NCBI GenBank assembly: GCA_018240785.1
Contig: JAFEFC010000010.1
Coordinates: forward strand, 39,365 to 103,364
Length of the DNA: 64,000 nt
Source of the DNA: Pseudomonadota bacterium
GTDB lineage: Bacteria; Pseudomonadota; Gammaproteobacteria; Burkholderiales; Rhodocyclaceae
Direction: 5' to 3'
Part shown: positions 30,144 through 59,876 of the stretch, in pieces
Numbering within the stretch: position 1 is the first letter of the stretch
How the letters are laid out: every line of letters starts with the position of its first letter
Made by a program: the position numbers and the translations under genes
Notes under the pieces: generated by a model
The model's input: the letters and a program-made list of their open reading frames with translations, nothing else
Told to the model about the DNA's origin: nothing
Database searches by the model: none

Positions 30144-30967
30144 GCAAGCTGCGGCTGATGATCCTGTGCGGCCGCAGCGCGCGGCACCTGCACGTCGCCA
30201 ACCGCCTGTGCCAGGCCGGCGAGGCCGTCGCCATCGTGCAGGAGACCGGCACCGAGTGGAACCTGCGCAAGACGCTCAGGAAGCTGCGCCCGGACAATCT
30301 TGCGCGCAAGGCCTGGCGCTGGCTGCGCGACCGCAGGCGCTATACCGGCAATCCGGAGGCGAAGTTCTTCTTCCCCGGCGGCAATCCCCGGCTCGACCGG
30401 CCGGAGCTCGTGCGCGAAGTACCGCACATCAACCACCCCGACGTCCTGAAGCTCGCACGCGAACTCAAGCCGGATCTGATCTGCGTTTTCGGCACCTCGT
30501 TGATCCGTGGCGAGCTGCTGAAGGAAGGCCGCCTCGGCATCGTCAACCTGCACGGCGGCCTGTCGCCCGAATACCGCGGCGCCGATTGCACCTTCTGGGC
30601 CCTGTATAACGGCGAGCCGGAGAAGGTCGGCTGCACGCTGCATTACATCGACGCGGGCATCGACACCGGTCGCCTCATCGCCCATGTCTCGCCCGAGGTG
30701 AAGGAGGGCGACAGCGAACTGGTGCTGTTCTGGCGCGCAGTGCGCGACAGCGCGGAGGTGTACGCGGAAGCCGTCGAACGCCTGGGTCGTGGGGAATCCC
30801 TGGGCGTGGCGCAGCCCGGCAAGGGCAGGCTGTACCAGGTCAAGGATCGCGGCCTCGCGCATGAAAGGTCGTTGGCCAGCCGCCTGCCGGACATGCTGGG
30901 TGGGTTGGCCTTGCCTCGTCGCGTCGAGTGGTTCGTAAGGACTGCCGTTCAGGAAAAACGCGCATGA
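30140..30967 (+). CDS. Formyltransferase-family protein
   Basis: A 275-residue protein with the formyl_trans_N fold. The catalytic triad region is clear: Asn and His in NLHGGLSPEYRGADCTFW, and Asp in HYIDAGIDTGRLI. Family members use N10-formyl-tetrahydrofolate to formylate an amino group of tRNA, GAR or a sugar nucleotide (ArnA, WbkC, VioF). There is no C-terminal Fmt OB domain, which fits a sugar-specific enzyme. The first 90 residues are Arg-rich and unlike Fmt. Overlaps its neighbours on both sides by ATGA, so it is tightly coupled to the toroid protein and the ligase/polymerase. The likely substrate is an amino sugar of the exopolysaccharide. Confidence 0.83.
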   Translation: MSKLRLMILCGRSARHLHVANRLCQAGEAVAIVQETGTEWNLRKTLRKLRPDNLARKAWRWLRDRRRYTGNPEAKFFFPGGNPRLDRPELVREVPHINHPDVLKLARELKPDLICVFGTSLIRGELLKEGRLGIVNLHGGLSPEYRGADCTFWALYNGEPEKVGCTLHYIDAGIDTGRLIAHVSPEVKEGDSELVLFWRAVRDSAEVYAEAVERLGRGESLGVAQPGKGRLYQVKDRGLAHERSLASRLPDMLGGLALPRRVEWFVRTAVQEKRA

Positions 30968-34354: not shown

Positions 34355-35578
34355 ATGACCTCCACGTTCCTGATCCTGCTCCTTGTCTGGGTGTGCGTTT
34401 CCTTGACATTCCTTCTTGCCCGCCACGGACGCACGCTGCGAGCCCTGTGGCTGGAGCCGACGCTCGGCCGCCCGGTGATCATCATTGAAAGCGACGACTG
34501 GGGCGTTGGGCCTCGGAGCGATGCCCACATGCTCACCAGCATTGCAGCCACGCTGGCCGGAGTTCACGACGCTGATGGCCGGGCACCGGTAATGACGCTT
34601 GGCCTGGTCGTCGGACATCCTGATGGGCCTGCCATTCTGGCTTCCGGGCTTGCCAAGTACCGTCGGCGAGTGCTGGATGAGCCTTCATTTGCACCGATCG
34701 TCACAGCGATACGTGCAGGATGCGATGCGGGCGTGTTCGCGTTGCAGTGGCATGGGCTCGAGCACTGCTGGCCCGATTCGCTTGTTGCGTGCGCACGTCG
34801 CAGCGACGAACTTAAGCGTTGGCTTGCGGATCCGTCGGCGCGAAGCGAAGCCCTGCCGCCAGCGCTCCAAACTCGCTGGCTCGATACGTCCGAACTGCCG
34901 AGTCGGCCATTGGAGCGCGGCCAGATCGACGACGCTGTCGGCGAGGAGGCCGCGGTGCTGGCGCGCGTGTTCGGCCGGGTTCCTAAAGTAGCCGTGCCCA
35001 ACACCTTCGTCTGGAACGACGATGTCGAGCGCGCCTGGTGCAAGGCGGGCGTCACCTGCATCGTCACGCCCGGCCGGCGCTTCGAGGGCCGCGATGCGAG
35101 CGGTGCGCTGGCGCAATCCACGCGCACCATCCGCAACGGAGACCGCTCCGCCGGCGGCGCCGTCTACGTCGTCCGCGACGACTACTTCGAGCCGAACCGC
35201 GGCCACCGAGCGGAACAGGTCTGGCAGGCCGTTGCGAAAAAGCGCCTCCTTGGTCGCCCGGCCTTGTTCGAAACGCATCGCGAAAACTTCATCGCTGCGC
35301 CCGAAACAGCCAGCGCTGCGTTGGCTGAGCTGGAGCGCGCGCTTCGCGGGCTGATCGAGCGACACCCGAATGGGCGCTTCATGTCGACTGCGGAACTCGC
35401 CGTTCACCTTAGCGATCCGGCGTCTCCACTCCGGGAGCGGTCGGTAGGCGCCAGACTGCGGGTTTTCCTCCGCCGCATCGCCCATGAGGCGAGCTGTGCC
35501 CGTTTCCTGAAGTACAGCGGCCTGGGCATGGCCTTGCGCCTCCTCCTGTGGGCTCCCCACTCCGGTATCCGCGTGTGA
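34355..35578 (+). CDS. Membrane-anchored polysaccharide deacetylase-like protein
   Basis: A 407-residue protein with a single N-terminal helix (TFLILLLVWVCVSLTFLLA) and a divergent NodB-like catalytic domain. The paired Asp in IIIESDDWGVG and a HG...EH pair in LQWHGLEHCW could form the metal site; further conserved-looking pieces are PNTFVWNDDVERAW and FETHRENF. It probably faces the periplasm or sits at the inner membrane surface. The start is unsure: an in-frame ATG at 34253 adds 34 residues without domain character, while 34355 begins right at the helix. Divergent from the asparagine-synthetase-like gene across 158 bp. Substrate unknown. Confidence 0.65.
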   Translation: MTSTFLILLLVWVCVSLTFLLARHGRTLRALWLEPTLGRPVIIIESDDWGVGPRSDAHMLTSIAATLAGVHDADGRAPVMTLGLVVGHPDGPAILASGLAKYRRRVLDEPSFAPIVTAIRAGCDAGVFALQWHGLEHCWPDSLVACARRSDELKRWLADPSARSEALPPALQTRWLDTSELPSRPLERGQIDDAVGEEAAVLARVFGRVPKVAVPNTFVWNDDVERAWCKAGVTCIVTPGRRFEGRDASGALAQSTRTIRNGDRSAGGAVYVVRDDYFEPNRGHRAEQVWQAVAKKRLLGRPALFETHRENFIAAPETASAALAELERALRGLIERHPNGRFMSTAELAVHLSDPASPLRERSVGARLRVFLRRIAHEASCARFLKYSGLGMALRLLLWAPHSGIRV

Positions 35579-35642: not shown

Positions 35643-36785
35643 ATGCACAATCGTTATCTGGTCCTCACCGAACTGTTCCTGCCCACCAAGGGCGGCACGG
35701 CCGTCTGGTTCGATGAGGTGTATCGACGCCTCGGTGGCAAGGAGATTCACATCGTCACCGCGGACGTGCCGGGCGCGCATGAATACGATGTCGGCCATCC
35801 CAACAATGTGCATCGGCTGAACCTGAAGCGTGTGCCCTGGCTCCGTCCAGAGTCGCTGGCCATGTACCTCAAGTTCTTTGCCAAGTCTCTATGGCTGGCC
35901 CTTACCAACCGCTTCGACGCCATTCATGCCGGCCGCGCGCTTCCCGAGGGCCTGGTTGCCTGGCTCGTCGCGCGCCTCACCGGCCGTCCGGTGGCCATCT
36001 ATGCGCACGGCGAGGAACTCACCGGCTGGGGCAAGGGCAAAAAATACAAGGCGATGTGCTTCGCGCTTCGGCATGCGGACAGGGTGATCGCCAACAGCGA
36101 CTTCACACGCGACACGCTTGTGGGCATGGGCGTGAAACCGGAGCGCATCGATCTCATTCACCCCGGGGTGGACATCGCCCGCTTCCGCCCCGGCCTGCCA
36201 TTTCAGGACTTGCGCGACAGTCTCTCCCTTGGAGCAGGAGCGAAGCTGATCCTGTCGGTCGGCCGGCTCAGTCGCCGCAAGGGGTTCGATACCGTGATCC
36301 GGTGTTTGCCGGATTTGACCAAATCCGGTCTGAATGTGCATTACGCGATCGTCGGTATCGGCGAGGACGAGGCTTATCTCGACGCCCTGGCCCGAGAGGT
36401 CGGCGTTGCCGAGCGGGTTCACCGCCTGGGGCATGTTCCCATGGACGATCTGCCGCGTTGGTACAACGCCTGCGATGTGTTCGTGCTGGCGAATCGCGAT
36501 GTAGGCGGAGATACCGAAGGGTTCGGGATAGTGTTTCTGGAGGCTGCTGCCTGTGGCAAGCCGGCCATCGCGGGGCGGGCTGGCGGTACGGGATCGGCCG
36601 TGCTGGACGGTGTGACTGGCGTTCGAGTCGACGCCTCATCGTCGGCGGAGTTGCTTCAAGCGTTTTCCAGTATTCTCAACGACGAAGATACGCGCAAACG
36701 TCTTGGGGCCGCAGGCCTTGCCCGGACAACCCAATCCCTGAGTTGGCAGGCCGTCGCCGAACGTACCCGGCTCTTGAAGGTTTGA
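35643..36785 (+). CDS. GT4-family glycosyltransferase
   Basis: A 380-residue GT-B glycosyltransferase resembling PimB-like mannosyltransferases. The acceptor domain begins YLVLTELFLPTKGGTAVWF, followed by IYAHGEELTGW and VIANSDFTRDTL. The donor domain has LSVGRLSRRKGFDTVI, NRDVGGDTEGFGIVFLEAAA and the GRAGGTGSAV switch. AAGGGA lies about 8 bases before ATG 35643. It lacks membrane helices and is probably peripheral. It stands 65 bp after the deacetylase-like gene and 22 bp before a secreted TPR-like protein. Confidence 0.88.
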   Translation: MHNRYLVLTELFLPTKGGTAVWFDEVYRRLGGKEIHIVTADVPGAHEYDVGHPNNVHRLNLKRVPWLRPESLAMYLKFFAKSLWLALTNRFDAIHAGRALPEGLVAWLVARLTGRPVAIYAHGEELTGWGKGKKYKAMCFALRHADRVIANSDFTRDTLVGMGVKPERIDLIHPGVDIARFRPGLPFQDLRDSLSLGAGAKLILSVGRLSRRKGFDTVIRCLPDLTKSGLNVHYAIVGIGEDEAYLDALAREVGVAERVHRLGHVPMDDLPRWYNACDVFVLANRDVGGDTEGFGIVFLEAAACGKPAIAGRAGGTGSAVLDGVTGVRVDASSSAELLQAFSSILNDEDTRKRLGAAGLARTTQSLSWQAVAERTRLLKV

Positions 36786-36807: not shown

Positions 36808-37617
36808 ATGACAAAATTTCTCATTGGTGCGCTTTTGGGCATTACTGCGCTCTCAGTGCAAGCTGCGCAACCATACGGACCAACCGACAACGAGATCTCA
36901 GCGCTTCCAGAGTTATGCGCAGTCAAATTGCGCCAGGCCAACACGCCGCAAGAAAAAGCTTATGCAACGAAGTACGGAGTCAATTGGCTTCATATGCACC
37001 ATTACTGCTTCGCCCTGAACTTTCTTAACAGGGGTCGAATGAGTGGTAATCAGAAGGACATCAGGGCTAGCCTCGATACGGCCAGCCGGGAATTCGGCTA
37101 CGTATTGACCCACGTCGAGAAGACGTTCTGGATGCGGCCCCAGATCAGTGTCGAGGCTGGCCGGGTCAGCATGCGGATGAAAGATTCTGCCAGTGCAAGT
37201 CGCCTGTTTCTCGAGGCGATTGCGCAGAACCCTGCGTACGAGTCCGCATATCAAGGGCTGATCGAGGTGCATAGGCAGACCGGTGATAAGGCGGGAGTCC
37301 TCGAACTGGCAACGTCTGGCCTTCGTTATCTGCCAAACTCGGCGATGCTGCAGAAAGCCTATCTCGACGCTGGCGGCAAGAAGCCTTTCCCTGAACCGAT
37401 CGCGAAACCCAACCAGCAGGAGAAACCTGCGGATGAGGAGTTGCGGGCTGAACCTGCTAGCGGTGGAGAGAGGGCGCAATCGTCTGCAAGAACGGACGCG
37501 CCGTCTGACGCAGATGCAAGCCGAGCGGATGTGGTGGAGCGTGGTTGCCGCTTCTGCCCTCCGGAAGAGATCCAGCGGAAGTGGCGCGAATCCTTTGGCG
37601 AACCTCCCACGAAGTGA
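36808..37617 (+). CDS. Secreted TPR-like protein of unknown function
   Basis: A 269-residue protein with a clear Sec signal peptide (MTKFLIGALLGITALSVQA, cleaved near 20) and helical repeats that look like two or three degenerate TPRs (about residues 85-190: ASREFGYVLTHVEKTFW, ASASRLFLEAIAQNPAYESA, GVLELATSGLRYLPNSAM). The C-terminal 80 residues are charged, Pro/Ala/Glu-rich and probably disordered, ending with a Cys pair CRFC. GGAG precedes the ATG. Base composition drops in GC from here to about 40.2 kb. It may be a periplasmic scaffold for glycan assembly; no function can be assigned. Confidence 0.7.
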   Translation: MTKFLIGALLGITALSVQAAQPYGPTDNEISALPELCAVKLRQANTPQEKAYATKYGVNWLHMHHYCFALNFLNRGRMSGNQKDIRASLDTASREFGYVLTHVEKTFWMRPQISVEAGRVSMRMKDSASASRLFLEAIAQNPAYESAYQGLIEVHRQTGDKAGVLELATSGLRYLPNSAMLQKAYLDAGGKKPFPEPIAKPNQQEKPADEELRAEPASGGERAQSSARTDAPSDADASRADVVERGCRFCPPEEIQRKWRESFGEPPTK

Positions 37618-37629
37618 AGGAGTATCGAC

Positions 37630-38550
37630 TTGTCAGTGCGTCTGTCCGTTGTCGTTCCAGTGTATCGCTCGCAAGCGACGCTCCCTGAATTGCACCGACG
37701 TCTGGTGCAAGCGCTTGAGCCCGTCGAGCCGTCATTCGAGATCATCCTCGTCGAGGACTGCGGCGGCGACGACTCATGGCGCATCATCAACGAGATCGCG
37801 GCGCGTGACCCTAGGGTTCGCGGGATACAGCTCAGCCGCAATTTCGGCCAACATGCTGCGACGATTTGTGGGTTTTCGCAGGCGAGGGGCGACTGGATCG
37901 CCACCCTGGATGACGATCTTGAGCAGGCGCCCGAGTCATTGCCCCATCTCTTTCGCAAGGTACTCGAAGGGCACGACCTCGTGTATGGCGTCTATCCGCA
38001 GCGCAGCCACAAGGCTTGGCGCAACATAACCTCGGCGACGGCGCGCTGGCTCTTTCGCAAGGCCATTCCTTCACTAAATTATGAATACACCAGTTTTCGG
38101 GTAATTCGGGGTGATCTTGCACGTGAATTGCAGCGGTTCGATTCGCCTTTCCCCTTTGTGGATGGCTACCTTTCGTGGCTCACGAATCGCTGCGCGTCTG
38201 TCGAGGTTCCGCACGGCGTGCGTGCAAGCGGTAGCAGTAACTACACGCTGAAAAAGTTGGTAACGCACACGGTCAACATCTTCGTCACGTTTTCCGACCT
38301 ACCGCTGCGCATGGCGTCCTGGCTCGGGTTGCTGACTTTCCTGTTGGGCATGGGATGGCTCGCAGTCATCCTGTTGCGGTACCTCCTTGGCGGGATCTCC
38401 GTCTCGGGTTTCGCTTCAATCATGGCTGGCATCCTGCTTTTTGGCGGCGTGCAATTGCTCGTGCTGGGCATCTTCGGGGAGTACCTTGGGCGGATGAATT
38501 TCAAGAGTTCCCGGAAGCCACTTTTCCTAATTGGACGCACCACAGGTTGA
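37630..38550 (+). CDS. GtrB/ArnC/DPM1-like membrane GT2 glycosyltransferase
   Basis: A 306-residue GT2 enzyme that makes polyprenyl-phosphate sugars. The GT-A domain has RLSVVVPVYRSQATLPELH, the metal site TLDDDLEQAPE and RVIRGDLAREL. Two C-terminal helices (about 230-250 and 265-290) are followed by EYLGRMNFKSSRKPLFLI, as in ArnC/GtrB. AAGGAG lies 8 bases before the TTG start at 37630; GTG 37636 is an alternative. With the GtrA-like protein and two GT-C enzymes downstream it forms the parts of a Gtr-type system: sugar loaded on undecaprenyl phosphate, flipped, and transferred in the periplasm. Confidence 0.88.
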   Translation: MSVRLSVVVPVYRSQATLPELHRRLVQALEPVEPSFEIILVEDCGGDDSWRIINEIAARDPRVRGIQLSRNFGQHAATICGFSQARGDWIATLDDDLEQAPESLPHLFRKVLEGHDLVYGVYPQRSHKAWRNITSATARWLFRKAIPSLNYEYTSFRVIRGDLARELQRFDSPFPFVDGYLSWLTNRCASVEVPHGVRASGSSNYTLKKLVTHTVNIFVTFSDLPLRMASWLGLLTFLLGMGWLAVILLRYLLGGISVSGFASIMAGILLFGGVQLLVLGIFGEYLGRMNFKSSRKPLFLIGRTTG

Positions 38551-38570
38551 TTTGCCAGGATGCCAGTCAG

Positions 38571-39137
38571 ATGCGATTGTTGATCTATGGTTCGAGGGAG
38601 TTTGCGTCAACCGTCGCTGACCTCGTCAGGCATTGCGGCTACGAAGTTGCGGGCATGGTCGATGATTTCAATATAGGGGCGGGGATTGTGGGCAATCTGG
38701 ATGCCGCTGCGAAGATCTTTCCCCCGGGCGAATACGGGTTTGCCGTTGCTATTGGCTATTCGAACATTCCCGCGCGCTGGCAGGCTTGGGAGCGCATTCG
38801 CGCCGCCGGCTACAGAGCCCCGGCGCTAGTTCATCCGCGCGCTTATGTGGCGGATAACGCCGTGATTGGAGAGGGCTGCATGGTCATGGCCGGCGCTGTC
38901 GTCGACGTGCGCGCGCAACTGGGAGAACTTGTGGTCGTCTGGCCCGGTGCGTGTATTAATCATGACGTCGCAGTGGGGAAAAACACGTTCATTTCACCGA
39001 ATGCGACACTATGCGGTTCCGTGGTAATCGGGGCCGATACGTTCATCGGTGCGGCCTCGTCAGTTGCGGATCATTCACATGTGCCAGCTTCCAGTTTCAT
39101 AAAAATGAATTCCGTTTTCAAGGATAACCGGCAATGA
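38571..39137 (+). CDS. NeuD/PglD-like acyltransferase with left-handed beta-helix
   Basis: A 188-residue sugar O/N-acyltransferase of the NeuD/PglD group. The N-terminal Rossmann-like part is LLIYGSREFASTVADL with MVDD. The C-terminal hexapeptide repeats run from about residue 90 (VADNAVIGEGCMVMAGAVV, INHDVAVGKNTFISPNATL, VVIGADTFIGAASSV). PglD acetylates the 4-amino group of a UDP-sugar using acetyl-CoA; an aminotransferase that makes such a 4-amino sugar is encoded 1.1 kb downstream. The start at 38571 is chosen from the domain N-terminus. The stop overlaps the WbqC-like gene (ATGA). Confidence 0.83.
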   Translation: MRLLIYGSREFASTVADLVRHCGYEVAGMVDDFNIGAGIVGNLDAAAKIFPPGEYGFAVAIGYSNIPARWQAWERIRAAGYRAPALVHPRAYVADNAVIGEGCMVMAGAVVDVRAQLGELVVVWPGACINHDVAVGKNTFISPNATLCGSVVIGADTFIGAASSVADHSHVPASSFIKMNSVFKDNRQ

Positions 39138-39841
39138 AGTCAGTGGTGGTGCTCCAGTCGAATTATGTTCCCTGGAAAGGATATTTTGATCTTATCCACG
39201 ATGCCGACCTGTTCATTTTTTACGACGACCTTCAGTACACGAAGAGAGACTGGCGCAGTCGAAACAAAATCAAGGCGGCGGGAGGCTCCGAGTGGATCAC
39301 GATTCCGGCGGGATCGGATACTAATCGCCTGATCTGCGATGTGGAGCTCAAGGATGCAACGTGGCAGCAGAAGCATTGGAAGACCCTGGTGCAGAACTAT
39401 CGGAGTTGTCCGCACTTCGAGCGGTACCGACGTTTTCTTGAGGATTTCTATCTTGCTCGGCCATGGCCCAACCTTTCGGAGATGAATCAGTATCTGATCC
39501 GGAATATTGCCAAGGATTTTCTTGGCATCCGAACAGAATTCCGGGATTCGCGCGAATTCAGATTGTCCGGTCAGAAGCAGGGGCGGCTGCTTGAGGTTGT
39601 GACTAAGGCAGGTGCAGAGCGTTACATTTCGGGTCCGGCGGCAAAGTGCTATATTCAGCCGGAAAGATTTTCTGAGGTCGGGGTCGATCTCGTCTGGAAG
39701 GATTACGCAGGTTACCCGGAATATCCGCAGCGATTTCCGCCGTTTGAGCACGGCGTTTCCATACTGGATCTCCTGTTCAATGTGGGCCCGGACGCTCCTT
39801 GGTACATCTGGGGGTGGCGCGAGGGGCCGTTGGCCGCATGA
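39134..39841 (+). CDS. WbqC-family protein
   Basis: A 235-residue WbqC-like protein. The family start VVVLQSNYVPWKGYFDLIHD and YDDLQYTKRDWRSRNKIK are unmistakable, with ISGPAAKCYI and PPFEHGVSILDLLFN further on. WbqC proteins occur in O-antigen and surface-glycan clusters beside 4-amino-sugar aminotransferases. They are thought to attach an amino acid or acyl group to the amino sugar, but the reaction is poorly defined. ATGA overlaps tie it to the NeuD-like gene before it and the GtrA-like gene after it. Cytoplasmic, no membrane segment. GC is lower than in flanking genes. Confidence 0.88.
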   Translation: MKSVVVLQSNYVPWKGYFDLIHDADLFIFYDDLQYTKRDWRSRNKIKAAGGSEWITIPAGSDTNRLICDVELKDATWQQKHWKTLVQNYRSCPHFERYRRFLEDFYLARPWPNLSEMNQYLIRNIAKDFLGIRTEFRDSREFRLSGQKQGRLLEVVTKAGAERYISGPAAKCYIQPERFSEVGVDLVWKDYAGYPEYPQRFPPFEHGVSILDLLFNVGPDAPWYIWGWREGPLAA

Positions 39842-40251
39842 AGACGACGATCGGGCAGTTGATCCGGTATGGGATCGTCGGTGTTGCGTCAAATGCGGTG
39901 GGCTATCTCCTCTACCTCGGGATCACCGCGGCAGGCATGGAGCACAAGCTCGCGATGACCTTGCTCTACGCGATTGGTGTCGCGCAGACCTTCATATTCA
40001 ACAAGCGCTGGTCCTTTGGGCACGGCGGAGCACATGGGCCTGCGTTCGTACGCTACTGCCTTGCGTATTCGATTGGTTATCTTCTCAATCTTGCGGCGCT
40101 TTTTGTGCTCGTGGACAAACTCGGTTATCCGCACCAGATCGTGCAGGGTGCAATGATCCTTACGTTGGCTGTAATGCTTTTTCTGCTTCAGAAGTTTTGG
40201 GTTTTTCGTTCGCATCCTTCACTGCCGGCACAGAGCGGTCCGCGTCTATGA
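39838..40251 (+). CDS. GtrA-family membrane protein (polyprenyl-P-sugar flippase)
   Basis: A 137-residue protein with four membrane helices and the GtrA signatures QLIRYGIVGVASNAVGYLLY and FIFNKRWSF, ending LLQKFWVFR. GtrA proteins are believed to flip undecaprenyl-phosphate-linked sugar across the inner membrane for periplasmic transferases. Coupled by ATGA overlaps to WbqC before it and the aminotransferase after it. The GtrB-like enzyme 37630-38550 would supply its substrate. Confidence 0.9.
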   Translation: MKTTIGQLIRYGIVGVASNAVGYLLYLGITAAGMEHKLAMTLLYAIGVAQTFIFNKRWSFGHGGAHGPAFVRYCLAYSIGYLLNLAALFVLVDKLGYPHQIVQGAMILTLAVMLFLLQKFWVFRSHPSLPAQSGPRL

Positions 40252-41372
40252 ACATTCCATTCAATAAGCCCTACATGACGGGCAAGGAACTTTGGTACAT
40301 CGCTCAGGCGCATGCCAACGGGCATCTGGCCGGGGATGGCAGCTTCACAAAGAAATGCTCGCGCTGGCTGGAGGCGCGCACCGGGGCGGGCAAGGCGCTG
40401 CTGACGCACTCATGTACCGCGGGGTTGGAGATGGCGGCGATGCTCGTGGACCTCAAGCCGGGCGACGAAGTCATCATGCCGTCCTACACCTTCGTGTCGA
40501 CCGCCAACGCCTTCGTGCTGCGCGGCGCGGTGCCGGTGTTCGTGGACATCCGGCCCGACACGCTGAACATCGATGAGAGGCTGATCGAAGCGGCCATCAC
40601 CGAGCGCACGCGCGCGATCGTTCCCGTGCATTACGCCGGTGTCGGCTGCGAGATGGATACGATCATGGACATCGCGCGCCGGCACGACCTTCTGGTGATC
40701 GAGGACGCGGCACAGGCGGTGATGGCGAGCTACAAGGGCAGGCCGCTGGGCGGCATCGGCCACATGGGGGCGCTGTCCTTCCATGAGACGAAGAACATCA
40801 TTTCGGGCGAGGGCGGCGCGCTGCTGGTGAACGGCCCGGCCTTGGCGGTGCGCGCCGAGATCATCCGCGAGAAGGGCACGAACCGGTCACAGTTCTTCCG
40901 CGGACAGGTAGACAAGTACACCTGGGTGGACATCGGTTCGTCCTACCTTCCGGGCGAGTTGATTGCCGCCTTCCTGTGGGCGCAGATGGAAGAAGCAGAC
41001 AACATCACCCGCCGCCGGCTCGGCATCTGGAACATGTATCACCAGTGGTTCGCGGAAGCGGAGAAGGCCGGCAAGCTGCGCCGGCCGATCGTGCCGGCGC
41101 ACTGCGCGCACAATGCCCACATGTACTACCTGCTGCTGCCAGATCTGGACCGGCGCACCGCCTTCATCGACAAGCTTCGCAAGGTCGGCATCAACTGCGT
41201 GTTCCACTACATCCCCTTGCACAGCGGGCCGGCCGGGCAGCGCTTGGGGCGGACGCATGGAGACCTGAAGGTCACCGACGAAATGTCGGATCGGCTGGTG
41301 CGTCTGCCGCTGTGGTTGGGGCTGGAGGATGCTCAGGCCGAAGTGATCCAGCAGATATTGGCATCCCTCTAG
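40248..41372 (+). CDS. wecE: dTDP-4-amino-4,6-dideoxygalactose transaminase-like (WecE/RffA)
   Basis: A 374-residue PLP aminotransferase of the DegT/DnrJ/EryC1 family, closest by eye to WecE/RffA. Shown by IPFNKPYMTGKELWYI, HSCTAGLEMAAMLVDLKPGDEVI and PSYTFVSTANAF, with the PLP Lys in SFHETKNIISGEGGALL, and HYIPLHSGPAGQ. It transfers an amino group from glutamate to dTDP-4-keto-6-deoxyglucose, giving a dTDP-4-amino sugar (Fuc4N type). Precursor dTDP-4-keto-6-deoxyglucose would come from RfbA (encoded at the far end) and RfbB (not in window). GC rises again here compared with the preceding genes. Confidence 0.88.
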   Translation: MNIPFNKPYMTGKELWYIAQAHANGHLAGDGSFTKKCSRWLEARTGAGKALLTHSCTAGLEMAAMLVDLKPGDEVIMPSYTFVSTANAFVLRGAVPVFVDIRPDTLNIDERLIEAAITERTRAIVPVHYAGVGCEMDTIMDIARRHDLLVIEDAAQAVMASYKGRPLGGIGHMGALSFHETKNIISGEGGALLVNGPALAVRAEIIREKGTNRSQFFRGQVDKYTWVDIGSSYLPGELIAAFLWAQMEEADNITRRRLGIWNMYHQWFAEAEKAGKLRRPIVPAHCAHNAHMYYLLLPDLDRRTAFIDKLRKVGINCVFHYIPLHSGPAGQRLGRTHGDLKVTDEMSDRLVRLPLWLGLEDAQAEVIQQILASL

Positions 41373-41391
41373 CGCAAAGGCCCCTCACTCG

Positions 41392-43041
41392 ATGCAGAAA
41401 ATTGCACGTGGACACGCTGGGTTTGCGACTTGGCCGCATCTCGCTTTATGGGCCTTGATTGCCGTTCTGGTGATTCCGACGATTGGCGCAGGAGGGTTCT
41501 GGTGGACCGATGAAGCACGCCACGCCATGGGCGGCGTCTTCATTCTCGATTTCATCCGCGACCTGCCGCTGTCGGACCCTCTGGGCTATGCAATGCGCTA
41601 TTTCGCGCAATATCCGGCGCTAGCCTTGAATTGGTATCTGCCAGGCTTTTACGCGGCGGAGGCGGCTCTTTTTGGGCTCTTTGGCGCGAGTGAGGCTGCG
41701 GCCCATTGGACTGTCATCGCGTTCTGCGCGCTGGGTGCCAGCGTGTGGTTCGCATGGACGCGGGAAGGGTGGGGGCCGTTGCCTGCTCTCGTTGCGACGG
41801 CGAGCTTCCTTGCCGTGCCGGAATGGAACTTCTGGGCACGCAGTGTGATGCTAGAGGCGCCAGCCATCGCCATGTTCGTGCTGTCGGTGTGGTGCTTTGA
41901 GCGCTACCTTGATCGTCCGACATTCACCCGTGCGCTAGTGGCGGGGCTGGTGATCGCGCTGGCGCTGTCGATCAAGCAAACCGTGGCGTTGTTGCTGCCG
42001 GCACTTTTCGTTTATGGACTCTGGACGCCACGGCGGTCTGCTCTGTTGAGAGTTCAGGCGCTTCCCGCGTATCTGCTCGTGATCGTTGCGCTTGCAGTCG
42101 TTGCCTTGCATGCGATCAAGTTCGGTAGCCTGGGCCTGGCGGCAACCGTGGGTGACAATCGCGTCGACGTGGGACAGAGTGCCGGGCGCCTCTCGCTGGA
42201 GCGCTGGATGATGTATCCACATGCCCTGGTGAAGACTTGGGGTTGGCCGCTGCTCGTGCTGTCCGCGGTGGGTATAACGTGGCCATCCAGGAAGAGCGAG
42301 GCGAGACTGCCGCTGCTGTATGCCTGGCTGGGTTGCTGGTACCTGGCGATGACCCTGCTGCTCGGATCTGCGGGCAATGCGCCGCGTTACACCCTGTACG
42401 CGTTTCCCGCCCTGGCCATGTTTGCCGCGAGGCCACTGTTCCTGCTTCAGGATCGGCCTGCGCTGCGTAACGCGATGCTGGCGGCACTGTTGATCGTGCT
42501 CGGGTTCAATGTGTGGCGCTCGCTGAACCAAGCGGTTCCTTATGTGAATGGCTATCGCGAAGCGGCGGAGTTCATCCAGCAGAGCGAGACGCAAGGGCCA
42601 GTCCTGTTCGCCGGCAAGCATGATGGCAACTTCATCTTCCATCTGCGTCGACTGGACGATCGGCGGAACGACGTCGTCCTGCGTGCCGACAAGGTGCTCG
42701 TGTCCCTTGCCGTGCACAAGTACTTCGGCATGGAATCGCATGTGTCCAGCCTGGACGACATCCAGTCGCTGATCGATCGCTATGGGGTGGAATTCATCGC
42801 CGTCGAACAACCGGATATCGTGCGGGTCAAGGAATTCGGCATGTTGCACGAGTTGCTGCAGAGACCTGAATTCGAGCGCGTCGCGGTGCTGCCGGTGACG
42901 TCTGGCGGGCGCGCGGAGGCTCCTGATCGGATCGAAATCTACCGTTATCGCAATTACAAGCCGTCCCTGGACACCACCATCGTGATACCGCTGCCGCACA
43001 TGGGAACCGAGATCAGATTCGAGCGGGACGCGAGGCGCTGA
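41392..43041 (+). CDS. GT-C (GT39/ArnT-like) membrane glycosyltransferase
   Basis: A 549-residue integral membrane protein of about eleven helices followed by a periplasmic C-terminal domain (about 395-549), typical of PMT/ArnT-type GT-C enzymes. The first periplasmic loop has the acidic WWTDEARHAMGG, where the Asp/Glu pair binds the polyprenyl-phosphate sugar. Such enzymes take sugar from a lipid phosphate donor and put it on glycan, lipid A or protein outside the membrane. It lies 19 bp after the aminotransferase and directly before a second GT-C gene. The likely donor is the sugar made by the GtrB-like protein. Confidence 0.85.
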   Translation: MQKIARGHAGFATWPHLALWALIAVLVIPTIGAGGFWWTDEARHAMGGVFILDFIRDLPLSDPLGYAMRYFAQYPALALNWYLPGFYAAEAALFGLFGASEAAAHWTVIAFCALGASVWFAWTREGWGPLPALVATASFLAVPEWNFWARSVMLEAPAIAMFVLSVWCFERYLDRPTFTRALVAGLVIALALSIKQTVALLLPALFVYGLWTPRRSALLRVQALPAYLLVIVALAVVALHAIKFGSLGLAATVGDNRVDVGQSAGRLSLERWMMYPHALVKTWGWPLLVLSAVGITWPSRKSEARLPLLYAWLGCWYLAMTLLLGSAGNAPRYTLYAFPALAMFAARPLFLLQDRPALRNAMLAALLIVLGFNVWRSLNQAVPYVNGYREAAEFIQQSETQGPVLFAGKHDGNFIFHLRRLDDRRNDVVLRADKVLVSLAVHKYFGMESHVSSLDDIQSLIDRYGVEFIAVEQPDIVRVKEFGMLHELLQRPEFERVAVLPVTSGGRAEAPDRIEIYRYRNYKPSLDTTIVIPLPHMGTEIRFERDARR

Positions 43042-44643
43042 ATGAACTGTGTGGCCAGGGAGGAGGCACCCGCAAAGACGGCGCGTAAGGATGCATACAT
43101 TGCGGGGCTTGTCTTCCTGTTCGCCGCATGTTGGCTTCTGGTGTTCTCAGGTGGTACGCCAGATATCAATCCCGACGGTGCCAATGCGCTCCATATGGCA
43201 CGGAACGTTCTGTCGGGGGACGGAGTGAGCATGAGGGTGGTGCCGCTCGAGGATGCCGCGCCGAAGGTGTCCCCGATGATCACGAAGCCGCCCGTCTATT
43301 CCCTTTCAATCGCCGCTTTGACAAAGCTCGGTGTCGACGTCAGGCACGCTGCCTGGGGCATCGTGGTGGTGGCGTGGGCACTGGCGGTCACGATGCTGTA
43401 TTTGCTAGGGCGACAGGTTCTGCCTTTTCGCGTGGCGCTGCTCATCCCGCTCCTCTTTGCCGTCCAGGTGACGACCCTGCGTTGGGGCATCACGATCCAT
43501 GAGCAGTCGCTGCTCGTTTGCCTCAGCTACATCGTTCTGTGGCGCCTGACTCGCCTGGAGACCTGCAGCGCTTGTTCAAGCAGCGTAGCCATGGGCTTGA
43601 CAGGCGTCGCTACGGGCTTGGCGATGGCGACCAGCTACCAGGGGCTTCCCCTGCTGATCGTGGCGACGACCTTCGTCGCGTCGCTGGCCGCCAGCCTGAA
43701 GCGCTGGCACGCGTTCGTGGCTTACTGCGGTGGCGTCGCCCTGGTCGGTGCATGGCCATTGGCACGATTCATCGCCCTCTTGCACGATGGAGTCAGGCCT
43801 GCGTTCACCGGGTCGGAGTCCGCAACCCACTACAGGATTCTGGCGGGTATCGCCAGTGCATTCCAGAATGATTTCATGGGGCGACAGTTGGTCTGGCTTT
43901 ACGGTGAATCCTGGCTCCATCTGTTGCTCCTCGCGCTCTTCACATTGGCCGTATGCGGTGTTACCGCATATGTTGCGCGAGTCAATCGCGGGTGGCGCCC
44001 GCTGGCCCTGTTCCTGATCGTCTATCTGGCAATGCTCGTTGGCTTCCTGGGCGGAAGGGGTACGGGGGTTTATGAACCCCGTGTCGGAGTGGTTTCCAAC
44101 GGCCTCCTGCTACTTTTCCTTGTATTTCTCGTGCATCGAGCGATGGTGCGCTCGGGTATGAGTGGCGGAGCAAGGATTGCCGGTGGCGCCGCACTCGCGG
44201 CGCTGTTCCTCGGTGCGCAATACAGCCGCATGCCCGAATTGTCGGGTTCCAGGTCGGCGCTATGCCCCGCGCCCCAGACGATGAGCTGGCTGCGCGAGCA
44301 TCTGCCGAAGGATTCGCTGGTGGCAGTAACACAGTGCGGATATGAGCTGGTGGCTGACTCTGCCGATTACTGGATCGTATTCATCCCGCCCGCCGATAGT
44401 TATTCCATGAGCGTGGCACGCTGGGGGGCAGACGATTTTGCCCGCCTGTGTCACATGAGTGCGCGTCCCTGGGTCGTCATCCTGGATGGTGGAAAGGGAG
44501 GCATTCGTGACCCCCTGATCGATCGATGGGGGTATGGAGGTCTGGTCGATGGTCTCTTCCGTGGAGAAAGCGCCGCAGATATCCGCCTTGCTGCGCGTCT
44601 TGAAGACGGCTATGTCTATCGGGTGATGTGCGGAGGAAGCTGA
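43042..44643 (+). CDS. GT-C membrane glycosyltransferase, second of a pair
   Basis: A 533-residue polytopic protein with about ten helices and a short periplasmic C-terminal domain (about 400-533). The first loop carries GGTPDINPDGANALHMARN, with Asp residues in the place used by GT39/GT83 enzymes. The N-terminus is charged and cytoplasmic (about 1-20). The ATG follows the previous stop with no gap. Sequence similarity to the upstream GT-C is confined to the general architecture, so a second sugar or acceptor is likely. Last plus-strand gene; the next gene converges. Confidence 0.8.
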   Translation: MNCVAREEAPAKTARKDAYIAGLVFLFAACWLLVFSGGTPDINPDGANALHMARNVLSGDGVSMRVVPLEDAAPKVSPMITKPPVYSLSIAALTKLGVDVRHAAWGIVVVAWALAVTMLYLLGRQVLPFRVALLIPLLFAVQVTTLRWGITIHEQSLLVCLSYIVLWRLTRLETCSACSSSVAMGLTGVATGLAMATSYQGLPLLIVATTFVASLAASLKRWHAFVAYCGGVALVGAWPLARFIALLHDGVRPAFTGSESATHYRILAGIASAFQNDFMGRQLVWLYGESWLHLLLLALFTLAVCGVTAYVARVNRGWRPLALFLIVYLAMLVGFLGGRGTGVYEPRVGVVSNGLLLLFLVFLVHRAMVRSGMSGGARIAGGAALAALFLGAQYSRMPELSGSRSALCPAPQTMSWLREHLPKDSLVAVTQCGYELVADSADYWIVFIPPADSYSMSVARWGADDFARLCHMSARPWVVILDGGKGGIRDPLIDRWGYGGLVDGLFRGESAADIRLAARLEDGYVYRVMCGGS

Positions 44644-47689: not shown

Positions 47690-48937
47690 TCACGACGGAT
47701 TCCTGTCGCGTCGTTCGCTTGCGGAAGTCGATTGTTGGGGCTTCGTGTTTGGAAACAGGCTATCCACGTCGCGGATCAGGCCAGACGGCCTGGATGCCAG
47801 GTCGGTGACGAGCTCCTGGTCTTCGATCAGCCATCGGTCCACGCTGGTCCGGGTCAGCAGATGGCCAAAGCCCGGACGATCGAGCAGGATCTGGTCGAGG
47901 ATCCGGTCGCCCAACGCCTTTTTGAAATGGCCTGCTTCCCAGTAGTACGCAAGCTGCGTCTGACGATCCCCGGGTGCAGGGATCGGTTCGGTCGTTTCCG
48001 CACTGATGCCGCTGAAATCCCAGACCTTGATGTCGGCATTCGTCGATCGTGCGTGCTCGGCAGCCGCCAGCACCGATGCCTTCCATTCCGTGAATAGCTG
48101 GCCGAGCCCGGCGCGTTCCATCATCAGCCGGATCTGCGCGTGGTATGGATAGATCACGACGTGAACGGTGGCACCCATCGTGGCGGCATCCTGGAGAAAC
48201 GCTTCCAGACCGGCGTATTCGACCGATTGATTTCCGTTGTCGGGATGGATTCGTGGCGATTTTCGCGTCCAGCTCCTGAGGTTCTCCTGCGCTCGCTGAC
48301 GGAACAGGCCGTAATGTCCGGTTTGTGCGACCTCAGGAATGTAATTGAGTAGCGGATTGAAACCGCGCGGGCTGAGGCTGGCCGGATGGCTGACATGCTG
48401 GATCGCGATCGTGTTCAGCGAATCCCGTAGCCCGGTGACGGAAAAGACCGTCTCGGCGAACACGCTGCCGTCGATGCGTGGCGCAGGCGGGATTGCAGGC
48501 GGTGGAACGCGCGCAGGCGGTGCACCGAGGAAATCAAAGAAATCCACGCCGACGATCACCTGCTTTGGCCTGCAGTCCGCATCGTCGAGCCAGTGCAACT
48601 GGCGCAACGCAATGTTGATCGGTGTGCCTGGAATCGCATGGTTGTAGGCGACAAGACCAAGCGTGGCGAAACCGGGATGTTCCGGGTCGAAGCCAATTTC
48701 CGCGCGCGAGTTCCCGAAGATGCCCGCTGTCGGGCAGAGCCTGTGCGCGGCTTGCCAGCGGGCAAGGTCGCGGTGGTGATCGAGATAGGGCTTGGTCGCG
48801 TTGAAGCCGGCAATACGCGGCGTTCCGAAGATGCCGAGCGGGTCCACCGCCACGTTGAATGCGCCGCAGAGCGCGACCGTGGCCAGCAGGGTCGCGAACA
48901 TCCAGCGCAGGTATCGAAGCCAGGGCGACATGGCCAT
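47690..48937 (-). CDS. SGNH-like protein paired with MBOAT acyltransferase
   Basis: A 415-residue protein with one N-terminal helix (about 10-30) and a periplasmic SGNH-like domain. The first block is TAGIFGNSRAEIGFDP, the middle VIVGVDFFDFLG, and the late block with His is YYWEAGHFKKALGDRI. The arrangement is that of DltD/AlgX/AlgJ-type partners of MBOAT proteins, which accept acyl groups from the MBOAT pore and place them on a polymer. The start overlaps the MBOAT stop by one base (TGATG). The polymer is probably the glycan made by this island. No enzyme activity has been assigned to close relatives that I recognise. Confidence 0.75.
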   Translation of the reverse strand: MAMSPWLRYLRWMFATLLATVALCGAFNVAVDPLGIFGTPRIAGFNATKPYLDHHRDLARWQAAHRLCPTAGIFGNSRAEIGFDPEHPGFATLGLVAYNHAIPGTPINIALRQLHWLDDADCRPKQVIVGVDFFDFLGAPPARVPPPAIPPAPRIDGSVFAETVFSVTGLRDSLNTIAIQHVSHPASLSPRGFNPLLNYIPEVAQTGHYGLFRQRAQENLRSWTRKSPRIHPDNGNQSVEYAGLEAFLQDAATMGATVHVVIYPYHAQIRLMMERAGLGQLFTEWKASVLAAAEHARSTNADIKVWDFSGISAETTEPIPAPGDRQTQLAYYWEAGHFKKALGDRILDQILLDRPGFGHLLTRTSVDRWLIEDQELVTDLASRPSGLIRDVDSLFPNTKPQQSTSASERRDRNPS

Positions 48938-50484
48938 CAGAACTGAAAGTAGAGAAACTCGGTCGGCCGGCTCAGCGCAAGCACCCCGAACGCAAACAGC
49001 AGCCCGACGAGCACGGCATCGCGGCGCCGTGGCTGCCAGGTGAAGAGCCGCGGCTGCCCAGCGTCCGCATCCTTGCCATGCATCGCGAGGGCTGGCTCGA
49101 AGCGCGACATGATCTCCTGGGTGTTGGGGCTGAGGAAGGCGATACCGGCGGCGAGCAGAACCCAACTCCAGGTCTCGACGAAAGCCCCGCCGCCGCCGAG
49201 ATGAGCCCTGACACCCATCCCCTGCATCACCGACCAGGCTGGGCCGAGTCGTGAGGCGATGGCGTCCGGCACGGCGGCGCCGTTTCCGCCCAGCATGCCA
49301 AGCACCACCTTGTGCGCAGTCGCCAGATCCGGCGCGCGAAAATACACCCATGCAAACACCACGCAAAGGAAGGTGAGACCGATACCGAGAAACGACGCCA
49401 GCGCAGGAGCCAAGCGGAATGGGATTTTCTGCGCCAGATCGCGCCAGACGTGGTTGACGACGAGAAATGCGCCGTGCAGTGCGCCCCAGATCACGAAGTT
49501 CCACCCTGCGCCGTGCCACAGGCCCCCCAGCACCATCGTCGTCAGCAGGTTGGCGTGCTGCCGGACCGGGCCGTGTCGGTTTCCGCCGAGCGGGATATAG
49601 AGGTAGTCGCGCAGGAAGCGCGACAAGGTCATGTGCCAGCGGCGCCAGAATTCGCTGATGTTCCAAGCCTTGTAGGGCGAATTGAAATTGAGCGGCAGCT
49701 TTACTCCGAACAGACGGGACAGGCCGATCGCCATGTCGGAGTAACCGGAAAAGTCGAAGTAGAGCTGGAAGGTATAGGCGAGGGCGCCGCCCCAGGCGAT
49801 CAGCAGCGATGGGTTTTCCGCCTGCGGGTGAAAGACGGGTGCTGCGTAGCCCGAGAGGTTGTCGGCAATGAGCACCTTCTTGGCGAGGCCGAGCGCAAAG
49901 ATCGACAGACCGATTGCGATGTTGGACAGGTCGAAACGGTAATTACGTTCGTCGTCGAACTGCGGCATCATTTCCTTGTGATGCAGCACCGGGCCCGCAA
50001 TCAGGTGCGGGAAATAGGTGACGAACAATACGTAATAGATGAAGCGGTATTCCGTCACCTTGCCGGCGTAGGCATCGGCAAGGAAGGCGATCTGCGTGAA
50101 CGTGAAGAAGGAAATGCCGATCGGCAGGATGATGCCGAGCAACGGCCATTCGGCGCCGGTTAAGGCATTCAGGCTCGAAAGGAAGAAGTCAGCGTATTTG
50201 TAATAGGCGAGCAGAAGCAGGTTGAGGCCGACTGCTCCGGCAAGTGCCTTCCTGCCGGCGCTGGTTCCGGCGTGGCGGGCGATGTAGCCACCGGCAAGAT
50301 AGTTGCCTGCGATCGAGCCCAGCAGCAGGGCAAGGTAGCGGTAGTCCCACCAGCCGTAAAAGAACAGTGAGCACGCTGCCAGCCAGGCGGCGCCGCTCCC
50401 CTTGCCGAAGCGCCCGAACAGGAAGAAGCCCGCGAGGGTGACGGGCAGATAGGCGAGCAGGAAGGCGTAGGAGTTGAAGAGCAT
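48937..50484 (-). CDS. MBOAT-family O-acyltransferase (AlgI/DltB-like)
   Basis: A 515-residue polytopic protein with family hallmarks: MLFNSYAFLLAYLPVTL start, YYKYADFF, DFSGYSDMAIGLSRLFG, FWRRWHMTLSRFLRDYLYIP, and the active His in GLWHGAGWNFVIWGALHG. It moves an acyl group, usually acetyl, across the inner membrane for O-acylation of exopolysaccharide. The SGNH-like protein encoded directly downstream would finish the transfer. Lies 15 bp after the membrane sulfatase-like gene, so acylation and that activity are probably coregulated. Confidence 0.92.
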   Translation of the reverse strand: MLFNSYAFLLAYLPVTLAGFFLFGRFGKGSGAAWLAACSLFFYGWWDYRYLALLLGSIAGNYLAGGYIARHAGTSAGRKALAGAVGLNLLLLAYYKYADFFLSSLNALTGAEWPLLGIILPIGISFFTFTQIAFLADAYAGKVTEYRFIYYVLFVTYFPHLIAGPVLHHKEMMPQFDDERNYRFDLSNIAIGLSIFALGLAKKVLIADNLSGYAAPVFHPQAENPSLLIAWGGALAYTFQLYFDFSGYSDMAIGLSRLFGVKLPLNFNSPYKAWNISEFWRRWHMTLSRFLRDYLYIPLGGNRHGPVRQHANLLTTMVLGGLWHGAGWNFVIWGALHGAFLVVNHVWRDLAQKIPFRLAPALASFLGIGLTFLCVVFAWVYFRAPDLATAHKVVLGMLGGNGAAVPDAIASRLGPAWSVMQGMGVRAHLGGGGAFVETWSWVLLAAGIAFLSPNTQEIMSRFEPALAMHGKDADAGQPRLFTWQPRRRDAVLVGLLFAFGVLALSRPTEFLYFQF

Positions 50485-50499
50485 CGATGTCGTCCGTCC

Positions 50500-52734: not shown

Positions 52735-52820
52735 GGATTACCCGCGGCCGGCAGGCGGATGCAAATTCAATTGCGAAGGCGACGTTTGGCGGCTCGTCGC
52801 GTGAGGATCCGTCGTCGCTT

Positions 52821-54666: not shown

Positions 54667-54720
54667 GCTGAAAAACGCGATGCGCTGCCGGATGGGCCGC
54701 GCATTCCAGTAAGAGTCCGT

Positions 54721-55641: not shown

Positions 55642-55674
55642 TATTGGCTGGGAAACGGCGCCCGCTTTCGGGCC

Positions 55675-56718: not shown

Positions 56719-56903
56719 TCATGCTCAGGCGAAGTGCGCAGCGTCCGCTGCATCCTTCGTCACAACTAAATTTGCATGAATATAAGGGATCTATGGATGA
56801 AATGCCATCCATATGGAATTGAGTTGCGGCCTCCAGGGCCCAAACATCGGGTCTGGCGGCGCCTGCGGCACCTGCGGCGCCAGGGTGGCGCGTCGGATGG
56901 CGG
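56719..56903. other. AT-richer spacer between paralogous GT2 genes
   Basis: 185 bp without a supported gene. It includes ATGAATATAAGGGATC (about 56776-56791) and near-palindromic ATGGATGAAATGCCATCCAT (56812-56831 area). It may hold a promoter for the downstream minus-strand genes; no clear -35/-10 pair was identified. Confidence 0.35.
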
Positions 56904-58660: not shown

Positions 58661-58730
58661 TGGGATTCAGGACCAGCTTGTTGTCCGATCGAACTCTAAT
58701 GCACTGCCGGATGCGTCGATTTCCCAAGAA

Positions 58731-59822: not shown

Positions 59823-59876
59823 CTTGTACGCTGCAAAACGTGAGGAAAGGGACGGGCAGCCAGCGAGGCGGTGCAG

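What the first reader, a model, noticed from the sequence alone, without database searches (positions are those of the whole stretch)
37630..44643. Compact Gtr-type module with 4-amino-sugar synthesis and acylation genes
In 7 kb there are a GtrB-like polyprenyl-P glycosyltransferase, NeuD/PglD-like acyltransferase, WbqC, GtrA flippase, WecE-like aminotransferase and two GT-C transferases, mostly joined by ATGA overlaps. Seen: families, order and overlaps. Known: GtrB/GtrA/GT-C make and use lipid-linked sugars in the periplasm, and WecE makes dTDP-4-amino sugars. Inferred: the module builds an acylated (perhaps amino-acylated) 4-amino sugar and adds it outside the inner membrane, with WbqC and the NeuD-like protein modifying the amino group. 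I do not recognise this combination beside an XrtA locus.
Basis: partly seen in the sequence, partly recalled or inferred. Interest (0 to 1): 0.72.

Follow-up and report, generated by a model that had tools for sequence, protein, structure and literature searches.

The report
Swappable cassette acylating a lipid-linked amino sugar
A bacterium related to Thauera carries a gene set that appears to make an unusual nitrogen-bearing sugar, decorate its nitrogen (probably with an amino acid) and add it to a surface polysaccharide; comparing relatives points to a likely job for WbqC, a protein of unknown function.

Summary
The genes are as described: ArnC/GtrB-type glycosyltransferase, NeuD-like acetyltransferase, WbqC, GtrA, a true WecE aminotransferase, two GT-C-like proteins (3 of 6 junctions are ATGA overlaps). 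It is not a chance neighbourhood. Around 81 sampled WecE genes, WbqC lies within 8 kb in 29, a WecD-like GNAT in 27, both in 0. Two genera each hold both versions, with NeuD-WbqC or one GNAT at the same place between GtrB and GtrA. There GtrB follows the acyl type (74-76% identity between families of one type, 46-48% within a genus across types), while WecE and GT4 follow the species. So the two modules probably make alternative N-acyl groups on dTDP-Fuc4N before GtrB loads it on the lipid. For the NeuD-WbqC group I propose N-acetyl-aminoacyl, probably N-acetylglycyl: E. coli O121, reported to carry N-acetylglycyl on Qui4N, encodes aminotransferase-WbqC-GNAT; 6 of 74 WbqC loci carry a formyltransferase, and the one tested is closest to PurN (glycinamide); the WbqC model weakly resembles nucleotidyltransferase-type folds and the amino-acid ligase BshC, without sequence support. 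An upstream gene without a Pfam match folds like ArnD. The amino-acid step is inferred, not assayed.

The parts
34355..35578 (+). NodB/ArnD-fold protein with an N-terminal helix, divergent polysaccharide-deacetylase type (ESDDWG and HGxxH invariant in 8 sequences), no Pfam or NCBIfam match
   Evidence: no match; alignment; model pLDDT 90.8; top Foldseek hit Salmonella ArnD 8t0j, E 1.9e-7, prob 1.00; homologues in L031, L032, L033, L048/L110, L076, L115, L153, with either acyl type
35643..36785 (+). GT4 glycosyltransferase that travels with the ArnD-fold gene
36808..37617 (+). small poorly conserved protein, no family match; the label TPR-like, exported is my own reading of the sequence
37630..38550 (+). 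GtrB/ArnC-type polyprenyl-phosphate glycosyltransferase (TTG start)
   Evidence: tracks acyl type
38571..39137 (+). NeuD/PglD-like hexapeptide-repeat acetyltransferase; the histidine aligned with solved relatives is kept (its catalytic role is recalled)
39134..39841 (+). WbqC protein, proposed aminoacyl ligase acting on the sugar amine
39838..40251 (+). GtrA/DPMS-type flippase
40248..41372 (+). WecE, dTDP-4-amino-4,6-dideoxygalactose transaminase
   Evidence: 511 bits to 4piw; HETKN kept, recalled as the PLP-lysine region
41392..43041 (+). GT-C (PMT_2) glycosyltransferase 1
   Evidence: 95% and 65% identical in L031 and L076
43042..44643 (+). GT-C-like membrane protein 2 (sub-threshold PMT_2)
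   Evidence: only L031 has a relative among L031-L089; 1 of 199 family genomes, the window's own

Best explanation
The locus makes, lipid-loads, flips and transfers an N-acylated 4-amino-4,6-dideoxygalactose (Fuc4N), built like the Arn (polymyxin-type) pathway but with exchangeable N-acylation. Steps: (1) WecE turns dTDP-4-keto-6-deoxyglucose into dTDP-Fuc4N (family assignment). (2) NeuD and WbqC together place a group on the 4-amino nitrogen; WbqC forms an amide between an amino acid (most likely glycine) and the sugar amine, and the NeuD-like enzyme acetylates the amino acid (inferred). Relatives put a WecD-like GNAT at the same place and would make plain Fuc4NAc. (3) GtrB moves the finished acyl sugar to undecaprenyl phosphate; it probably reads the acyl group, because it is exchanged with the acyl genes. 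(4) GtrA flips it. (5) GT-C proteins transfer it to a surface glycan, perhaps the neighbouring exopolysaccharide. The ArnD-fold protein may trim the acyl group on the lipid, as ArnD does. Shown here by sequence comparison: gene content, alternation of the acyl modules, GtrB tracking. Inferred: amino acid identity, order of NeuD and WbqC, acceptor, role of the ArnD-like protein.
For: True WecE. Of 81 sampled WecE loci: WbqC 29, WecD-like GNAT 27, both 0, neither 25; Fisher p 2.5e-7; one row per genus and pattern 0/21/19/23, p 9e-5; among 48 with GtrB 0/23/21/4, p 5.8e-10. Positional swap GtrB-{NeuD-WbqC or GNAT}-GtrA in two genera, window against L076 and L110 against L115: GtrB 48% and 46% across types within a genus, 76% and 74% within types between families, while WecE is 87/89 against 79/78, GT4 81/81 against 63/63, the ArnD-fold protein 60/66 against 45/46. 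Acyl type needs 5 changes on the GtrB tree and 8 on the WecE tree (67 labelled rows; lowest of 100 shuffles 13 on either). Three replacing GNATs tested (L076, L078, L079) have WecD as best NCBIfam match, below cut-off. Amino acid: the E. coli O121 cluster is rfbB-rfbA-DegT-WbqC-GNAT and a review passage lists N-acetylglycyl on Qui4N, citing the O121 structure paper; 9 of 9 residues invariant in A1 are kept in O121 WbqC at 52 of 211 identity. A formyltransferase sits in 6 of 74 WbqC loci, none with NeuD; the one tested (L113) is closest to PurN. WbqC model pLDDT 96.4; first PDB hit BshC. ArnD-fold neighbour.
Against: The BshC likeness is weak (Foldseek E 0.017, TM 0.43; no PDB hit at E 0.001), the lower hits include unrelated folds, and profile comparison with a two-sequence BshC profile gives 0.3% probability. 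WbqC shows no HIGH-type motif (motif recalled). WbqC and a GNAT coexist outside the WecE set (E. coli O121; L083), so alternation was seen beside WecE only, and my GNAT profile is not specific for WecD: it also hits the O121 GNAT. 32 of 74 WbqC loci have no NeuD, formyltransferase or GNAT within 6 kb, so a cap is not universal. GtrA follows neither species nor type (69/57 against 70/58). The tree has exceptions, such as L162 (GNAT) inside a WbqC clade, and WecE separates the types nearly as well (8 against 5 changes). N-acetylfucosamine in Thauera MZ1T EPS (passages) does not say which position bears nitrogen, and the passages mention no amino acid.
Confidence: 0.6

Rival explanations
1. NeuD alone acylates Fuc4N (simple acetylation, as PglD or VioB do) and WbqC does something else, such as modifying another position or delivering the substrate to GtrB.
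For: NeuD resembles PglD, perosamine N-acetyltransferase and VioB, named as acetyltransferases of 4-amino sugars. A paper passage calls WbqC functionally uncharacterised.
Against: WbqC occurs beside WecE without NeuD in 14 of 29 loci and none of the 29 has the GNAT; in O121 it lies between the aminotransferase and the acetyltransferase, in a cluster that needs two acyl bonds on Qui4N.
Confidence: 0.2
2. WbqC attaches a non-amino-acid acyl group (hydroxy or fatty acid) activated elsewhere, for example by the AMP-binding enzymes seen near some WbqC genes.
For: A cluster of ORFs whose one tested member is an AMP-binding enzyme lies within 6 kb in 7 of 74 WbqC loci; a hydroxybutyryl-alanyl group on Qui4N is listed in the passage.
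Against: None of the module's proteins matched an AMP-binding family; the O121 case and the PurN-like gene point to a glycinamide.
Confidence: 0.15
3. An unremarkable polysaccharide neighbourhood in which these families meet by chance.
For: DegT, GT2 and acyltransferase genes are common in such loci; a random place in the same WbqC loci lies within 4 kb of a true WecE in 16.9 of 39 cases against 25 observed.
Against: Alternation with GNAT, two positional swaps, GtrB within 2 kb in 23 of 39 against 10.6 expected and NeuD in 19 against 6.5.
Confidence: 0.05

Closest known systems
Arn pathway (ArnA-F, ArnT; UDP-Ara4N on lipid A; pathway recalled)
   Same: 4-amino-sugar aminotransferase, N-acylation of the amine, ArnC-type transfer to undecaprenyl phosphate, ArnD-fold enzyme, small flippase, GT-C transferase
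   Different: WecE instead of ArnB, so dTDP-Fuc4N is expected; NeuD-WbqC or GNAT instead of the ArnA formyltransferase; GtrA instead of ArnE/F; acceptor unknown
Gtr three-component glycosylation (GtrA, GtrB, GT-C)
   Same: same three parts and presumed topology
   Different: the donor is a made-to-order acylated amino sugar, and GtrB is exchanged together with the acyl genes
Enterobacterial common antigen WecE-WecD (dTDP-Fuc4NAc; pathway recalled)
   Same: WecE; relatives carry a WecD-like GNAT
   Different: NeuD-WbqC replaces WecD; lipid monophosphate route instead of growth on a lipid-PP oligosaccharide
E. coli O121 O-antigen (rfbBA, aminotransferase, WbqC, GNAT; Qui4N with N-acetylglycyl)
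   Same: 4-amino sugar, WbqC and one acetyltransferase side by side
   Different: an aminotransferase that does not pass the WecE models, GNAT instead of NeuD, Wzx/Wzy route
BshC (cysteine added to glucosaminyl-malate; function recalled)
   Same: proposed chemistry, amino acid joined to a sugar amine; weak fold likeness
   Different: no detectable sequence relationship; less than half the length

Membership tests
WecE | passes curated WecE models | tested here: met
   623.8 bits (cut-off 375) and 616.9 bits (cut-off 434.85)
WecE | acts on dTDP-4-keto-6-deoxyglucose to give dTDP-Fuc4N | not testable with these tools
   a true RmlB, the source of the substrate, is in the genome (519.7 bits against 365.1); no assay
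Gtr three-component system | GtrB-type GT2, GtrA-type flippase and GT-C transferase together | tested here: met
   GT-C2 is below the Pfam cut-off
Gtr three-component system | transfer of the flipped sugar to a periplasmic acceptor | not testable with these tools
   no assay
Arn pathway | ArnB and ArnC orthologues over curated cut-offs | tested here: not met
   ArnC model 156.3 bits against 529; ArnB model 199.5 against 631
Arn pathway | ArnD-type NodB-fold enzyme | tested here: met
   fold only: top PDB hit ArnD, E 1.9e-7; no Pfam match
WbqC family (PF08889) | passes Pfam gathering score | tested here: met
   248.9 bits against 21.3
BshC family | sequence or profile relationship | tested here: not met
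   hhalign probability 0.3% with a two-sequence BshC profile, low power; single and profile searches of PDB sequences listed no BshC
BshC family | shared fold | tested here: inconclusive
   Foldseek prob 0.90, E 0.017, TM 0.43
NeuD/PglD/VioB acetyltransferases | passes TIGR03570 | tested here: not met
   151.0 bits against 160.8, just below; PglD_N and Hexapep in Pfam are met

The most novel reading that the evidence does not exclude
WbqC is a family of aminoacyl (mostly glycyl) ligases that act on the amine of 4-amino sugars; with exchangeable caps (acetyl by NeuD or GNAT, formyl by PurN-like enzymes, perhaps methyl) it gives bacteria a modular way to put short peptide-like groups on surface sugars, and GtrB evolves with each group.
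Probability: 0.55. Interest if true: 0.75.

Novelty: new variant of a known kind. Interest (0 to 1): 0.63.

Why it matters
Amino-acid-bearing amino sugars are known in bacterial surface glycans (passage), but in the passages I read no enzyme is named that joins the amino acid to the sugar amine there, and one paper calls WbqC functionally uncharacterised (PMC5532660). The natural swaps give a specific, cheap test of WbqC function and of which GtrB residues read the acyl group. They also suggest that lipid-phosphate sugar addition works as an exchangeable cassette: change the acyl enzyme and GtrB, keep the rest.

Tried and rejected
Sequence homology of WbqC to solved structures: none. WbqC-BshC profile comparison: negative, so BshC is kept as an analogy only. 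Conservation of GT-C2: 1 hit in 199 family genomes, the window itself. DNA search for other WbqC alleles in E. coli: only the O121 allele, 13 of 5426 genomes, all at least 99% identical, so no second O-type with a known structure could be compared. Literature: 10 searches; a paper on S. dysenteriae 7 / E. coli O7 nucleotide sugars and an O-antigen review are not held, so earlier proposals for WbqC may exist outside the library. My crude gene caller was poor and was not used for counts. The ORF clusters include antisense ORFs; of the tail genes only representatives were checked in Pfam and only the L113 formyltransferase against solved structures. The idea that the flocculation gene tmz1t_3249 of Thauera MZ1T is the ArnD-like gene here was dropped: its annotated neighbours fit the other deacetylase at 57866-58660 better; not tested.

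Rows dropped and limits: E. coli locus L100 scored under the WbqC profile threshold and is not among the 74, so it counts among the 54 comparison loci although it has a WbqC; two pairs among the 74 are duplicates (L034/L072, L048/L110). The 74 are a mixed sample: 39 loci were found with this WbqC as query, the rest come from the WecE and family samples. Several of the 81 WecE loci are cut by contig ends (for example L118, L151), so absences there are weak. In the trees 4 of 71 rows, without WbqC or GNAT, were not counted, and for L115 the GtrB nearest WecE was used, not the one beside the GNAT (one search uses the latter). Score and distance thresholds were chosen by me. The formyltransferase at 29870-30967 of the window lies more than 6 kb from WbqC and is not in the counts.
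Full report
Observation. The seven genes at 37630-44643 are real, on one strand and in the order given. The aminotransferase passes both curated WecE models; WbqC, GtrA, the GT2 domain and GT-C1 pass Pfam; NeuD misses its NCBIfam cut-off narrowly; GT-C2 is only a weak PMT_2 match. ATGA overlaps join three of six junctions. The locus sits between a cluster of XrtA/PEP-CTERM-associated genes and a second, minus-strand polysaccharide cluster with RmlC, a MOP-flippase-like protein, MBOAT, sulfatase and sulfotransferase genes. The genome has a true RmlB elsewhere, so the WecE substrate can be made. The closest relatives found are named Thauera.

How widespread. WbqC is in 31 of 199 genomes of the family and WecE over its cut-off in 14 of 199, the window's own counted in both. 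Seven genomes have both, against 2.2 expected (hypergeometric p 0.002), and in all seven the two lie within about 7 kb (places). A scan of genome contigs with this WbqC returned 39 loci from many phyla; within 2 kb of WbqC a GtrB relative was found in 23 of 39 (10.6 expected for random places in the same loci), NeuD in 19 (6.5 expected), and a true WecE within 4 kb in 25 (16.9 expected). WbqC also occurs without WecE: of the 24 other family genomes with WbqC I read 7 loci, and 6 have a different DegT aminotransferase within 4 kb.

Alternation of acyl modules. To avoid starting from WbqC, I took WecE over its cut-off in samples of the family, order and class (14 of 199, 49 of 399 and 20 of 369 genomes, the window's own in each; 81 different loci) and read the neighbourhoods. 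WbqC lies within 8 kb in 29, a WecD-like GNAT in 27, both in none, neither in 25 (p 2.5e-7). Keeping one row per genus and pattern leaves 0/21/19/23 (p 9e-5); among 48 loci with a GtrB, 0/23/21/4 (p 5.8e-10). GtrB accompanies 23 of 29 WbqC loci, 21 of 27 GNAT loci and 4 of 25 others. NeuD accompanies 15 of 29, 1 of 27 and 1 of 25. The GNAT profile was grown from three seeds; those three have WecD as best NCBIfam match, below cut-off, and the profile also hits the GNAT of E. coli O121, so it is not specific for WecD.

Natural swap. In the same genus as the window, genome G103 (L076) carries the same locus, but between GtrB and GtrA it has one GNAT instead of NeuD and WbqC. A second genus (f43 g129) holds both versions too: G284 (L110) with NeuD-WbqC and G324 (L115) with the GNAT between GtrB and GtrA; the NeuD-WbqC order was read on L048, whose WbqC is identical to that of L110. 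L115 has a further GtrB relative between GtrA and WecE. Identities cross cleanly. Within a genus but across acyl types GtrB is 48% and 46% identical although WecE is 87% and 89% and GT4 81% and 81%. Between the two families but within an acyl type GtrB is 76% (NeuD-WbqC) and 74% (GNAT), WecE 79% and 78%, GT4 63% and 63%. The ArnD-fold protein follows the species (60/66 against 45/46); GtrA follows neither (69/57 against 70/58). On trees of 71 loci (67 with a label) the acyl type needs 5 changes for GtrB and 8 for WecE; the lowest of 100 shuffles needs 13 on either tree. The simplest reading is that GtrB recognises the acyl group, hence acylation comes before transfer to the lipid, and the two modules make different groups on the same dTDP-Fuc4N.

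What WbqC adds. The E. coli O121 O-antigen cluster is galF, tviB, epimerase, rfbB, rfbA, DegT aminotransferase, WbqC, GNAT, wzx, GT2, serine-O-acetyltransferase-like, wzy, asnB, two GT4, gnd (WbqC, GNAT and DegT families confirmed). A review passage (PMC3210612, passages read) lists N-acetylglycyl among N-acyl groups of 4-amino-4,6-dideoxyglucose and cites the O121 structure paper, which I have not seen. GalNAcAN in O121 (PMC7555982, passages read) can account for asnB. That leaves WbqC and the GNAT for glycine and acetyl; GNATs commonly use acetyl-CoA (recalled), so WbqC is the candidate for glycine. This is by elimination. Window and O121 WbqC share 52 of 211 residues and all nine positions invariant in the 50-sequence alignment.

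Independent hint. A formyltransferase occurs within 6 kb of WbqC in 6 of 74 WbqC loci and in 0 of 54 other loci (p 0.04; one of the 54 is the E. coli locus). The one I compared with solved structures (L113) has glycinamide ribonucleotide formyltransferases, PurN type, as its 17 best relatives, with ArnA far weaker. None of the six has NeuD (p 0.026). So acetyl and formyl may be alternative caps on a glycinamide. A methyltransferase is near WbqC in 25 of 74 loci and in 1 of 54 others.

Fold. The WbqC model is confident (mean pLDDT 96.4). No PDB match reaches E 0.001. Among the 50 listed, those with probability 0.5 or more are BshC (0.90, E 0.017), a CTP:glycerol-3-phosphate cytidylyltransferase (0.98), HldC (0.57), a flavin-binding protein of Thermotoga (0.54) and a Uba1-Ubc13 entry (0.51); the rest, which include unrelated folds, are lower. 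That the first four share a HUP-type nucleotide-binding fold is recalled. Profile comparison finds no WbqC-BshC relationship, with a weak two-sequence BshC profile. Four viral proteins without names match the model well (E 1.6e-15 to 7.5e-8). I use the fold only as a hint that WbqC could handle ATP and an amino acid.

Arn-like frame. The gene upstream at 34355-35578 has no Pfam or NCBIfam match, yet its model (pLDDT 90.8) has ArnD as first PDB hit (E 1.9e-7), followed by other polysaccharide deacetylases and GH57-type enzymes. Together with its GT4 neighbour it occurs with both acyl types. So this locus parallels ArnB (WecE), ArnC (GtrB), ArnD (this protein), a flippase (GtrA) and ArnT (GT-C). 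Whether the ArnD-like protein removes part of the acyl group, leaving a charged amine, is an open and testable idea.

Literature. In the open library 12 papers hold the word WbqC, several plainly on other subjects (listing). In the two that I searched, one calls the family functionally uncharacterised (PMC5532660, passage) and one lists a Bacteroides WbqC next to a DegT aminotransferase (PMC10434189, passage). Thauera aminoaromatica MZ1T exopolysaccharide contains N-acetyl fucosamine (PMC4784049, passages), compatible with but not proof of a Fuc4N product here.

Verdict.

Noticed in passing
window 34355-35578: Protein without any Pfam or NCBIfam match whose model's best PDB hit is ArnD; travels with a GT4 gene beside both acyl types.
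   Followed up: yes
L113:6756-7526; relatives in L035, L036, L046, L047, L058: Formyltransferase (PurN-like in L113) seen only beside WbqC, never with NeuD: possible N-formylglycyl sugars.
   Followed up: partly
25 of 74 WbqC loci, e.g. L132:5306-5980: A SAM methyltransferase strongly associated with WbqC loci (1 of 54 other loci).
   Followed up: partly
9 of 74 WbqC loci, e.g. L111:6558-7373: PhyH-type dioxygenase near WbqC (0 of 54 other loci).
   Followed up: no
WbqC model: Four unnamed viral proteins match the WbqC model well by fold (E 1.6e-15 to 7.5e-8): WbqC-like proteins appear to be carried by viruses.
   Followed up: no
window 29870-30967: Formyl_trans_N protein (66.6 bits) near the end of the XrtA cluster, far below the one curated family it matched.
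   Followed up: no
window 57866-58660 and 50500-61355 minus strand: Polysaccharide deacetylase, GT2s and sulfatase in an order that recalls the floc-deficient MZ1T gene tmz1t_3249 region described in PMC4784049.
   Followed up: no
window 47690-54666 minus strand: DltB/MBOAT-like acyltransferase, an unassigned 413-aa protein, sulfatase and sulfotransferase genes: a possibly acylated and sulfated polysaccharide.
   Followed up: no
L040 8482-10711: GtrB-NeuD-WbqC triad without a nearby WecE (only another DegT type at 19.4 kb): the triad seems to move as a block.
   Followed up: partly
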